Both the position numbers and the translations under genes were made by a program. A model generated the notes under the pieces. That model saw only the letters and a list, made by a program, of their open reading frames with translations. It did not search any database and was not told the DNA's origin. Below are positions 7,654-59,272 of a stretch of 64,000 nucleotides of DNA, piece by piece. Location: positions 20,724,986 through 20,788,985 of the forward strand of contig NC_135355.1 in the NCBI RefSeq assembly GCF_051622035.1. The letters run 5' to 3'. Position 1 is the stretch's first letter, and each line of letters opens with the position of its first letter. Source of the DNA: Arctopsyche grandis (lineage: Eukaryota; Arthropoda; Insecta; Trichoptera; Hydropsychidae).

Positions 7654-8023
7654 GGTAAACGGAATATTCCGCAAAAAGCGATCTCGCGTAAGTCATTAAA
7701 ATCTCGATCACGGAATATCTGGTACTCGAGTTCTCGTTAGTACTATAGGGGATGAACGAATGAGACGACTGGCATGTTAATGCACGTGTTTTATTTATGA
7801 CAGCTGAAGGCAGAGTGAGGTAGCTAACTCCGAACACAATCGAGTTGGTCCCCACTTGCAGGAAGGTGACCAAACTCGACCATGTCGTATATCGAGCCGC
7901 CACAGTACAATATTTCGCGAGTTTTTGGGTTCAGATTGATGGAGTTTTCGGGTGCCAAATGTTCCGTGATCGAGATTTCAGTGACTTGGCGAGATCGCTT
8001 TTTGCGGAATAATCACCGAACCG
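7654..8023. mobile_element. Foldback element, family FB-1
   Basis: The 370-bp element is flanked by GTGCAATT at 7646-7653 and 8024-8031. The arms of about 90 bp are inverted (ATTCCGCAAAAAGCGATCTC and its complement, then TCTCGATCACGGAA). The outermost ends differ: GGTAAACGGA at the left, GGTTCGGTGATTA (read inwards) at the right. The same end pair occurs in the elements at 37745 and 23520. It lies about 200 bp upstream of the abstrakt start codon, so it may sit in that promoter. Confidence 0.75.
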
Positions 8024-8223
8024 GTGCAATTAGGCAAAGATTAAAAATACATCAGAACCATAAAAAGTTAATATTAAAATTAGTGGATTTGGATAATGAA
8101 AGATTATGATGAGGTGCAGTATTTGTAATTTGTGGTGTTATTGTCAAAAATGTGTGTTTTGACAGTTGTGTCAAACTTAGTAGACGAAGTGTAGGGCAGG
8201 GCGGTTGAAACGTTAGCGTAAAT

Positions 8224-11200
8224 ATGGCCACCTCGGGTGATCCTCCTATTAAGCGATATCGTCGTGATAAACAAGCTTCAGAAGAGTCGGATTCAGAATC
8301 GTCCGGTCCATACGTTCCATATGTGAGCGTACGTGACCGTCGAAAGCAGCAGTTGGCTCGGTTAGGTCATCTTGAGAAAGCGACACAATCAGCGAGTGTC
8401 TCTGCCAACGTTGGTGCCCCAGGAACAGAACCTACTTTAGAGACCAAAAGCTCCAGTGATAACGATCACGACGATGAAGGTCAATTCACTTTTACTGATT
8501 TACATTTCAATATTTAATTTTGATAAATCACTTCGTCCACCCGTCTAGTCCGTGTCCAACTTCCTTGTGCCCGTTTACCTCATATATGCACTTCTCGTTA
8601 TTATATGATTGATATTTTAACCTCTCAACTCGCTATGTCATCTACTTCAGGGCTTCCCAATTACTTTCATGTCACGACCCCCTAAATCTGAAAAAATTAA
8701 TTCCCGGCCCCTAAAAAAAATTTTTTTCTAGTTAAAAGGTTTATTTGGCAGTAATTATCACAATTATAATACACATATTTATATTCAGCACAAAATTATA
8801 GGAACTTGCTTAAAAACATTTTTTTTTAAATAAAAACTATACACACATGAAACAATTTAATGCGATAGATGAGGTCGCATGTTTTTACATAACAAATCGA
8901 TATCGGGTTCAATGTTAAAATCTTCCAAAGTCTCCGTGGAAAGGCATGACCTTTGTTTATTTTTTAATATAAGTAATGACGAAAATGCTGTTTCGCATAG
9001 GTACGTAGTCGCGAAAGGAATAAAAGTTACCAGGGCTTCTTTTCCAATAGCAGGATATTCTTGCTGTCGCCTTAACCAAAATTCTGAAATACTTTTTCAT
9101 TAAATTCCACTTCAAGCAAATTATCTGATCTGATATCGATCAACTCTTCTTGGGCTGTTTACGTAATATGATCATATTTTAAGGACTTGGCAAATGGTGT
9201 TCTTATCCAATTGTTCCTTTCATCCTCATTCAAGTTTGGGAAATATTTCCTTAAATATATATGTACATTCTCTAAATATGTAATGTGGAAAAATATTCAT
9301 AAATGAATATTTGTACTTCCTATTGAATATTTTCGCGGCCCCCGCGAGAAATCCTATGGCCCCCCAGGGGGGTCGCTACCCTCAATTTGGGAAGCACTGA
9401 TCTACTTAACCCTTTGAGTGCTGACATCCTTCTGTTGAAAGCCCGCCACGCTGAAAATTTCGCCAACATTTCCGACTAGAATTATTTAGACATGCAATCG
9501 AAAGTAGGTATAAATGTTGTAGCTAATCCAAACACACCCTAGATAACGATTTCGAGTTTTGTAAAGGTGTGTTTAGACTCTCTAATATACCTTGTAACAA
9601 TCTTCTTTTTCTTCTTCTATAATATACTAGTGTTGTGCCCGTTGAAATTTCAACGGGTGGTTTCGGAAACAAATTGATACATGATTTAGATTAAAGACAC
9701 AATACGTATAGTAACAATTAATCGGAGTCGGAATTAAAACAGAAATCGGGAATCGGAACTGAAACAAGGATCGGTATACGGATCTGAAAATGGAGTCCGT
9801 ATCCGAAACAAAAAGGAATCAAGAATCCACGCCCCGGGGGCCACCACCCCGAGTTTACCGCAAATCGATATCAAAACGGGTGGTAGTTCCGAAACGGCTG
9901 GTTTCGGAAAGAAATTAATTCACGAATTACGAAGTGATAGGTCCTGTGCATCGCCAACTTCAGACCCACACCACTTCCCCGCTACCCTGCATACGATAGC
10001 GATTCACCTGTTTGCACTACATATGCTCCTGGTATCGTAAAATTTGTTTTTTCAAAATCACCCACGTTCTGCCATATATACATATTTACATCACGTCGGT
10101 TTTTATATCTTCTCTTAATATATAATTTCGAAAGAGACTTTGTAAGTAAGTATGTAAGTATCTATATATTATATGTAAGTATCTTCGTTCACATACTTTT
10201 TACTTTATCTATGTACGCAGTAACAATAGATGAACTTTTTTTTTTAATGGAAATCAAAAATATTGCTAACTTTTAGTATGGCAGCATCTTTTGTTTTTAT
10301 AGTAGTCTTAAACTTAATGATCAGTCGTTTTCCGTGATTAGTTCAAAATTATGAAAATGGATTTGTTGGGTTTTGATACTAAAGGTCACATAATATTCGG
10401 AATCATCATAAACTGCATTGAGATAAAATCGTGAAAAATGAAAATTTAAAGAATACTTTTCCTATGGTTGAATTTAAATTGTAAAGTTTTAAATTTGATT
10501 TGTAAAATGTTGAATTTGGAATGTTAAAATATTTTAATAATTATTGCCCAAATTATTATTTTTAATGAACATATATTTTTAAACAATTCACATTGAATCT
10601 CAATTATGTTTAATCAGTCGATAAACTTATATTGTTGCTGTTTTATAATTTTTTTATTCTTTCGGACTATTTATTTATTTTACGGAAGTACCCAACTCAG
10701 TATGACGAGCTGTACTTACATAGTATAACAAGCCTTGTACACTGAGTATACAACGTTCCATACTTCTCCGAGTGCATTGAACTTCAAAGTCCAATTTTCA
10801 CATCGTACATCATCAAAACATTCTTCTTCAAGCAATTATCATTATAAATAATCAAGTGTACAAGCAAAACCTAACATTATCAAAAAATGTACATATACGC
10901 TACCATTAAGCCAGCAGTTTGGCTTAATGGTAGCGTATATATTTAGCACCACTGCGATCGATAGTTCGACTCGTCAAACTGCTGGTTAGATTTGGGGGTT
11001 TTGTGACTCCAAATCGATCGTTTCTCTATCAGAGTTTGCCAAATTTATCTGATCTGTGTGTATAATTTGTAGAAATTATGCACAGAAATCTGAACTCTAT
11101 AGATGTCTCTATGATTTCGTGTTTATTATGTGTATAAAAATTGTAATAATAATTGTGCACAAAATCTAAAAATAATCCATAGATGTCTTTATAATTATTA

Positions 11201-57880: not shown

Positions 57881-59064
57881 ACTGAAGTCTATTTTCATAT
57901 TATACTTTACCCAGTTTCACTCATTTTTCATATCTTGTTTAAATCACGACTGTTCTGATATGATCATTCATTCAAATTGATATTTCTCTTTCTTCAACCC
58001 CTCGAGTGACAAAGATATATTAGACATGTGCATTATGCATATTCATATATAATAATTTTATAAATTATAATTTGAGTGCAAACGAACTATTTATGCGTAA
58101 GTATGCAAGGTGAGCATTGCATCGAGTATGGTCCATTTCATATGTATACAATTATTATTATTAAAATACTGCGGATAACCTATTGCGGTCGCGTACCGCC
58201 ACTGAAAACCAAGGACGTATCCTCGCCGAGTAAAACCGCATTACACATATTATACATACATATAGTATACCAAGTATGTATATATTTTGCGATTGAAAGT
58301 TGTATTTGTGCATTTGAACTTGAATTACCGAAATTTGATATGTAACAAAAATAAAATAAATTACATATCAGCCGGGATGTGGTATAAATAGAAGTAATAC
58401 CTGACGTATATTGAGAAAAAAATAAAGTACAATTGAGTATTGCAATTAGTGTTTGTAAGTTCGCCCACGTCATAACTCAATTGAACCCCGATCGGTTAAC
58501 TGGTCACGATTAGTCACAAAAATACCTAATTTATGGATGAAAATTGTGTAGTTACTGCTATTAGGAAAACATTTTTTAGTGAAGAACAGATAAACAGATC
58601 CAATGTGGATGAAATTTTACTTACATTTTGGTAATATTGAAGATTCTGATATTGCATATACCTATGTGCATATATGTATGTACTCACCGAGTGAAGCTTT
58701 GAAATTTTCATCTACATTAGTTGGTTATATGTTTTTCTTTGTGACATAGACTTCCTACAGTGACAAGGTTCTCTAAATAAGATTTGAGCTTCGATATACA
58801 ATGTAATACATACATGTCAATTAATAAGAGTATACTAGAAGAATGTTAAATAATGTATGTACATACATATTATATATGTATGTATAATTAAATGGATCAA
58901 ATGAGGAAGATAATGATGTTTGTAGCATGGCATTAAATCAGTTATCACGCCGATCGCGTGTTGAGCAATCAATACATATGTACATACATAGATTAACATG
59001 CTTAAAATTTCCTCGAATCTTTTTAAGCCATAATTATTGTAATATGATATCTACTGAGCTAAAA
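57881..59064. other. Spacer, no gene seen
   Basis: AT-rich; the short frames at 58076-58473 on both strands lack recognisable sequence or splice context. TATGTA patches only. Confidence 0.4.
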
Positions 59065-59272
59065 TGATGTCACGACAGAACGCTCACGGACATAAAACTC
59101 AAAGACACAGCAACCCACAACGCTCACGCGACAAAACACTCACGGAGCTTGAGCGTTTTGTCCCGTGAGCGTTTTATTTGTGAATAGTCTGTGAGTATTT
59201 TGTCGTGCGAACGTTATGTCGTCCGCATTTTGTCATTGAGCATTAGGTCCGTGAGCGTTTTGTCGTAGAACC
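59065..59272. mobile_element. Foldback element, family FB-4
   Basis: Both arms are made of words GCTCACGCGACAAAAC, ACTCACGGA and (right, inverted) CGTGAGCGTTTTGTCG. The centre is CACGGAGCTTGAGCG. The right end read inwards is GGTTCTACGACAAAACGC; the left is GTCACGACAGAACGC. No clear target duplication could be fixed. Confidence 0.7.

What the first reader, a model, noticed from the sequence alone, without database searches (positions are those of the whole stretch)
7654..59272. A set of foldback elements with shared ends or a shared 16-base word but different interiors
Five loci (7654-8023, 23505-24235, 37745-38066, 39529-40173, 59065-59272) are hairpin-forming elements. Two full elements and the 23.5-kb array share the unequal end pair GGTTCGGTGATTA / GGTAAACGGA although their arms differ (ATTCCGCAAAAAGCG versus TGGTCACGAGAAAAC). 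Three (FB-2, FB-3, FB-4) have arms made of tandem words that align as GNTCACGNGANAAAAN: GGTCACGAGAAAACT, GTTCACGCGACAAAAT, GCTCACGCGACAAAAC. Where flanks are clear, 7-8 bp are duplicated. This looks like one transposase moving word-repeat palindromes whose interiors diversify. Drosophila Foldback, a MULE relative with repeat-built arms, is the nearest known analogue; I do not know of this exact group being described.
Basis: partly seen in the sequence, partly recalled or inferred. Interest (0 to 1): 0.72.

Follow-up and report, generated by a model that had tools for sequence, protein, structure and literature searches.

The report
Insect Mutator-type foldback transposon families
These hairpin elements are short, gutted copies of jumping genes; for one of them a full-length relative with the same ends and an enzyme gene of the Mutator class sits elsewhere in the same genome, so they look like new families of a known kind.

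Summary
The elements are real, though the 23.5-kb locus is an array, not one foldback, and FB-4 is decayed. The window lies in a 476-Mb, apparently insect genome. FB-3 is a non-autonomous Phantom/Muta-type Mutator-like element (MULE): a 7,284-bp relative on another contig has the same unequal ends, word-built arms, an exact 9-bp target duplication and a 494-aa frame with FLYWCH and MULE domains. FB-1, FB-2 and the array belong to a second, abundant group with another end pair (GGTTCGGTGATTA / GGTAAACGGA; 1,166 and 1,084 exact 17-mers), 8-9-bp duplications, and nearly always one end of each kind (45 A-B, 0 A-A, 2 B-B close inward pairs). Its transposase was not found; a MULE is inferred. FB-1's odd interior is mostly a foreign 161-bp repeat. 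The word shared by FB-2 with FB-3/FB-4 is near chance; FB-3/FB-4 sharing is not. One transposase for all five is not supported. Unequal ends, word-built arms, variable interiors and 8-9-bp duplications are all published for Tm1 and Muta1. New families, known kind.

The parts
7654..8022 (.). FB-1: non-autonomous element, end B (GGTAAACGGA) at left, end A (GGTTCGGTGATTA, reverse) at right, 369 bp; 9-bp duplication AGTGCAATT/GGTGCAATT (8/9)
7744..7904 (.). 161-bp foreign high-copy repeat nested in FB-1, flanked by GTAC at 7740-7743 and 7905-7908
   Evidence: parallel case
23526..23762 (.). Array unit 1, FB-1 type, ends B and A; duplication GCTGCCAAC/GTTGCCAAC (8/9)
23778..23917 (.). Array unit 2, FB-1 type, part of the 155-bp tandem repeat
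23933..24053 (.). Array unit 3, FB-1 type; duplication AACAACTAC 9/9
24069..24212 (+). Half FB-2-type element: end A and one arm, no end B
37745..38066 (.). FB-2: end A at left, end B at right, arms of 15- and 17-bp words, 322 bp; duplication AAATATTT/CAATATTT (7/8)
39530..40173 (.). FB-3: 644-bp non-autonomous Phantom-type MULE inserted in a non-LTR reverse-transcriptase frame; 16-bp words; duplication TATGTTCG/TATGTTCA (7/8)
59065..59272 (.). FB-4: decayed word palindrome; right end GGTTCTACGACAA; left end and duplication unresolved

Best explanation
The loci are non-autonomous DNA transposons of at least two foldback families. (a) FB-3 is moved in trans by a Phantom/Muta-type MULE transposase: a 7.3-kb relative with the same ends, arm words and internal repeats carries a FLYWCH-MULE protein. 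Shown: same ends and arms, protein domains, exact 9-bp duplication, insertion of FB-3 into a retrotransposon reading frame. Inferred: that this protein binds the repeated words and cuts at the unequal ends. (b) FB-1, FB-2 and the array units share a second end pair (A, B) and are moved by another transposase that needs one A and one B end, makes 8-9-bp duplications and tolerates unrelated arms; a second FLYWCH-MULE is the likeliest candidate but was not found. The ends set where the enzyme cuts; arm words (probable enzyme-binding sites) and interiors turn over by slippage, tandem duplication and nested insertion.
For: C2:30333896-30341179: duplication GTGCACACG 9/9, ends GGTTACACGACAATTGG / GGGGACGCGACAATTGG, arms over 1.1 kb; FLYWCH 7.8e-10 and MULE 1.9e-14 on its 494-aa frame. 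FB-3 kin: 12 of 15 loci hold both ends; 11 of these 12 have a duplication (8 exact 9-bp, one exact 8-bp, one 8/9, the window copy 7/8); 10 of 12 have clearly one end of each kind. A/B family: 22 of 30 loci have end B within 600 bp of end A; 16 of 22 have an 8- or 9-bp duplication with at most one mismatch (12 exact), against 0 (9 bp) and 2 (8 bp) of 462 pairs of flanks from different loci. Inward pairs within 600 bp on C1: 45 A-B, 0 A-A, 2 B-B.
Against: No transposase linked to ends A/B: 9 MULE proteins gave no tblastn match in 38 loci; of 30 MULE loci read 1.5 kb to each side, 2 had an A-like site (two mismatches allowed) and none had an exact end B. No proof that the 7.3-kb copy is active. 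The C13 relative lacks a duplication; 4 of the 15 FB-3 loci show no pair or no duplication. 6 of the 22 A-B pairs show no 8-9-bp duplication. Binding of the words is untested.
Confidence: 0.82

Rival explanations
1. One transposase moves all five; ends and words have diverged.
For: Ends of both families start GGTT on one side; both make 8-9-bp duplications; FB-2 and FB-3/FB-4 words share TCACG..GA.AAA.
Against: The two end pairs differ beyond GGTT and are each kept genome-wide; the FB-2 word resemblance is near chance; the FB-3-type transposase lies between FB-3 ends, not A/B ends.
Confidence: 0.08
2. The A/B family (FB-1, FB-2, array) belongs to another superfamily with 8-9-bp duplications, such as hAT, P or Merlin.
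For: 8-bp duplications occur (6 exact of 22); no MULE was found inside A/B ends; one 2,467-bp A/B pair holds decayed frames that by eye recall a hAT-type zinc finger.
Against: 9-bp duplications are at least as frequent (6 exact, 9 with at most one mismatch, of 22); those decayed frames reach no Pfam cut-off and follow about 68 bases of FB-2, as a nested insertion would; the unequal ends recall Tm1.
Confidence: 0.2
3. The palindromes arose by local inverted duplication or replication slippage, without transposition.
For: The array at 23.5 kb clearly grew by tandem duplication.
Against: Duplications at defined ends, an interrupted reverse-transcriptase frame that reads on across the insertion point, and over a thousand dispersed ends.
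Confidence: 0.02

Closest known systems
Muta1 and other Phantom-clade MULEs of Aedes aegypti (PMC5225508)
   Same: Transposase of about 500 aa with zinc and DDE domains; long arms with a terminal motif and short subterminal tandem words (9-15 bp in 10 of the 12 long-armed families); 8-9-bp duplications; many non-autonomous copies with variable word number and unrelated interiors.
   Different: Other end and word sequences; the FB-3 relative is 7.3 kb (Muta1 3.2 kb) with 98-bp repeats in its arms; Muta1's terminal motif is described as an imperfect palindrome, here the two ends are unequal.
Tm1 of root-knot nematodes (PMC3169594)
   Same: Phantom-type FLYWCH-MULE; unequal 7-bp end motifs, usually one kind at each end; about 14-bp tandem words; mostly 9-bp duplications; MITE-like derivatives.
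   Different: Another phylum and other sequences; only the GGTT start of one end is alike.
Drosophila Foldback/NOF (Rehavkus group, table in PMC6446971)
   Same: Foldback arms with tandem words (recalled); 9-bp duplications.
   Different: Rehavkus is listed with a PHD finger; the FB-3 relative has FLYWCH and no PHD match.
Tetris/DAIBAM and Galileo of Drosophila (PMC4079207, PMC3688188)
   Same: Foldbacks with tandem repeats in the arms; Tetris shares its end portions with a different-looking MITE; Galileo arm repeats bind the transposase.
   Different: Galileo has a P-type THAP transposase; for Tetris no transposase was found; Tetris arm units are about 220 bp.

Membership tests
Phantom/Muta-type MULE (FB-3) | Transposase with FLYWCH finger and MULE domain between the same ends | tested here: met
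   on L024:916-2397:-; ends and duplication
Phantom/Muta-type MULE (FB-3) | 8-10-bp target duplications | tested here: met
   11 of 12 loci with both ends, at most one mismatch; 9/9
Phantom/Muta-type MULE (FB-3) | Long arms with subterminal tandem words | tested here: met
Phantom/Muta-type MULE (FB-3) | DDE residues intact; place in the Phantom clade of a tree | not tested
   no tree built, no residue check made
Phantom/Muta-type MULE (FB-1, FB-2, array) | FLYWCH-MULE transposase between ends A and B | tested here: inconclusive
   no match in 38 loci; most MULE loci could be read only 1.5 kb to each side
Phantom/Muta-type MULE (FB-1, FB-2, array) | 8-10-bp target duplications | tested here: met
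   (16 of 22 with at most one mismatch); in the window
Tm1-like unequal ends | One end motif of each kind per element | tested here: met
   45 A-B, 0 A-A, 2 B-B within 600 bp; 10 of 12 clear, 2 ties
Drosophila Foldback/NOF (Rehavkus) | Transposase with PHD finger | tested here: not met
   for the FB-3 relative only; FB-1/FB-2 cannot be judged
Galileo (P superfamily) | THAP-domain P-type transposase | tested here: not met
   for the FB-3 relative only
FB-4 in the FB-3 family | Same ends and a target duplication | tested here: inconclusive
   word and right end alike, no duplication; related word block on C9

The most novel reading that the evidence does not exclude
Ends A and B are two obligatorily different transposase sites read as an ordered pair, so one transposase carries elements whose whole arms and interiors have been replaced (FB-1-type and FB-2-type) as long as one A and one B face each other; the arms are then free to become any palindrome. 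An end-defined, arm-independent family of over a thousand copies would be an unusually clean case for asking what such a transposase recognises.
Probability: 0.35. Interest if true: 0.5.

Novelty: new member of a known kind. Interest (0 to 1): 0.36.

Why it matters
It ties a foldback MITE to a transposase-bearing MULE in the same genome, and gives a large natural set (over a thousand A and B ends) in which ends stay fixed while arms and interiors change. PMC3688188 says that whether the tandem repeats of Foldback and Phantom elements bind transposase was untested; intact-looking transposase frames and word-built derivatives in one genome make that testable. Otherwise it is ordinary repeat biology with new family names.

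Tried and rejected
Rejected: a word common to FB-2, FB-3 and FB-4; the 23.5-kb locus as one foldback; FB-1's interior as its own; the C6 MULE locus (L030) as the A/B autonomous element (its FB-1-like stretch is a decayed copy holding the 161-bp repeat, and no end A with up to three mismatches lies in the 5.6 kb read); the C1 MULE locus (L038) as the source of FB-3 or FB-4 (no matching ends in the 9.3 kb read); the 2,467-bp A/B pair on C1 as autonomous. Relatives outside: 4 patterns and one protein found nothing in viral contigs, a collection where an insect repeat is hardly to be expected; six end and word strings searched as text gave 2 unrelated papers.

Mistake made and mended: treated loci of minus-strand hits as turned round, and looked at one strand only; the loci are stored on the plus strand. 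One search repeated the end pairing and the joined loci, and the frames; they replace them.

Not obtained: genome searches with FB-4 as DNA and with the FB-1-arm end pattern; FB-2 as DNA was not asked; element ends of most MULE loci.
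Full report
What the window is. It lies at C1:20724986-20788985 of an unnamed assembly of 475,669,232 bases in 189 contigs. It looks like an insect: low G+C and intron-split frames that recall DDX41, a caspase and a sugar-nucleotide transporter (my reading; no database named these).

Check of the observation. FB-2 and FB-3 have long inverted arms and FB-1 shorter ones; FB-4's arms are 72-75% alike. 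FB-1 and FB-2 share GGTTCGGTGATTA 13 of 13 and GGTAAACGGA[A/C]TA 12 of 13. Exact copies of the first end occur at three places in the window, all at these elements, although looser matches to either end are no more frequent than in shuffles. Measured at fixed ends, the target duplications are 9 bp in FB-1 (8/9), array unit 1 (8/9) and unit 3 (9/9), and 8 bp with one mismatch in FB-2 and FB-3. At random places in the window 9/9 turned up in 0.05% and at least 8/9 in 0.12% of trials.

The array at 23.5 kb. Three FB-1-type units each run from end B to end A. Units 2 and 3 with a 15-base spacer are a 155-bp tandem repeat, 96% matching. Units 1 and 3 have their own duplications in overlapping target sequence, GTTGCCAACAACTAC. 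I read this as repeated insertion at one spot followed by tandem duplication. The fourth piece, 24069-24212, is end A plus one FB-2-type arm without its other half.

FB-1's interior. Eight of the listed genome matches to FB-1 cover exactly bases 7744-7904, at 91-98%, and most other rows cover little more; a few copies include the arms. The 161 bases sit between GTAC and GTAC. On C6 the same repeat is present, with ATAT on both sides by eye, in a stretch whose paralog L015 on C1 lacks it. Without it and one GTAC, FB-1 is 204 bp.

FB-3 and its transposase. FB-3 interrupts the reverse-transcriptase frame of a non-LTR element; with the element and one duplication set aside the frame reads on (Pfam RVT_1 9.2e-12 on one side). 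The genome search with FB-3 listed 190 matches after scoring 40 of 647 candidates. Of 15 fetched loci, the window copy included, 12 hold both ends. Eleven of these 12 have a duplication: eight exact 9-bp, one exact 8-bp, one 8/9, the window copy 7/8; L084 has none. L083, L086 and L088 lack one end in the stretch held. Ten of the 12 have clearly one end of each kind (GGTTACACGACAATTGG and GGGGACGCGACAATTGG), two are ties. A search with the Pfam MULE model gave 60 matches among 81 candidates. One, with its 494-aa frame at C2:30336134-30337615 (minus strand), lies in an element of 7,284 bp, C2:30333896-30341179. Its ends are the FB-3 ends, the 9-bp duplication GTGCACACG is exact, and its arms of over 1.1 kb consist of FB-3-type words and the 98-bp repeat also seen in FB-3's interior. 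Pfam finds FLYWCH (7.8e-10) and MULE (1.9e-14). A second copy (C2, about 31964544-31971744) has the same arms and a broken frame; a third on C13 holds a MULE fragment with one stop between FB-3-type ends but has no duplication. Frames of 494 or 487 aa of this transposase group exist at 8 of the 21 MULE loci read (L022-L027, L031, L032); the ends of the element were read for only one of the eight, the C2 element above.

The second end pair. The 17-mers of ends A and B with the FB-2 continuation occur 1,166 and 1,084 times, 0 in the reversed controls. Of 30 fetched loci with end A (the first 30 listed, all on C1), 22 have end B (at most two mismatches) within 600 bp; of these 22, 6 have exact 9-bp and 6 exact 8-bp duplications, 16 in all with at most one mismatch. 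Flanks of different loci match so well in 0 of 462 pairs at 9 bp and 2 of 462 at 8 bp. Eight loci without such a partner were left out of that count; one of them, L066, has a partner with three mismatches and an 8/9 duplication. Among 100 A sites and 94 B sites on C1, inward pairs within 600 bp were 45 A-B, 0 A-A and 2 B-B; between 600 and 12,000 bases, where neighbours mix, 6 A-B, 4 A-A and 2 B-B. Behind end A, 2 of the 30 loci have FB-1-type arms and 28 score nearer to FB-2, four of these low on both. So here the ends, more than the arms, define the family. No transposase was found between ends A and B: 9 MULE proteins had no tblastn match in 38 loci. The longest true pair seen, 2,467 bp, follows FB-2 for about 68 bases and then holds decayed frames without Pfam support.

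FB-4. Its word is close to FB-3's (0 of 4,000 shuffles as good) and its right end, GGTTCTACGACAA, resembles GGTTACACGACAA. No duplication was found, and another hairpin begins one base further on. A 23-base form of the word occurs at two other places; the one on C9 is a word block that aligns to FB-4 in pieces at 75-94%, with no facing arm in the 551 bases read. It stays unplaced.

How it works. Shown: transposition, unequal paired ends, 8-9-bp duplications, and for FB-3 a relative with a FLYWCH-MULE gene. Inferred: the protein binds the words through FLYWCH and cuts at the ends as an ordered pair; word number and interiors change by slippage, tandem duplication and nested insertion. In Galileo arm repeats do bind the transposase, and for Foldback and Phantom this is called untested (PMC3688188, passages).

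Known kind. Muta1 of Aedes (PMC5225508, passages and section 7) and Tm1 of root-knot nematodes (PMC3169594, passages) between them show the main features: MULE transposase with zinc finger (FLYWCH in Tm1), short tandem words in the arms, 8-9-bp duplications, derivatives with unrelated interiors, and in Tm1 a different motif at each end. Tetris (PMC4079207, passages) shares end portions with a different-looking MITE. PMC6446971 (passages) merges Muta with Phantom and lists Rehavkus with a PHD finger. Library searches were made; the original Phantom paper was not held. None of the six end and word strings tried was found in a paper on transposons, which covers open-licence PubMed Central text only.

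Noticed in passing
window 7744-7904: A 161-bp high-copy repeat with 4-bp duplications, nested in FB-1 and present as inverted pairs on C6; kind not identified.
   Followed up: partly
window 35601-36741: G+C-rich tandem arrays (GGGGCGCAGCCTTAT; GGCGAAGCCCTAAA...); a similar array lies in MULE locus L036.
   Followed up: no
window 27124-27473: A palindrome with ends TTAACACTATG; the same end sequence occurs near the C1 MULE locus.
   Followed up: partly
window 59274-59510: A separate hairpin element with 83-bp arms abutting FB-4.
   Followed up: partly
window 33304-33474 and 54369-54488: Two hairpins whose arms look related (...CAGCCTTACTTA...); similar sequence in L028.
   Followed up: no
window 8860-9096: hAT C-terminal dimerisation fragment (Pfam 1e-4) close to FB-1.
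   Followed up: no
G000 loci L009, L018, L028, L038: Further FLYWCH-MULE frames of 482-514 aa whose element ends were not determined.
   Followed up: partly
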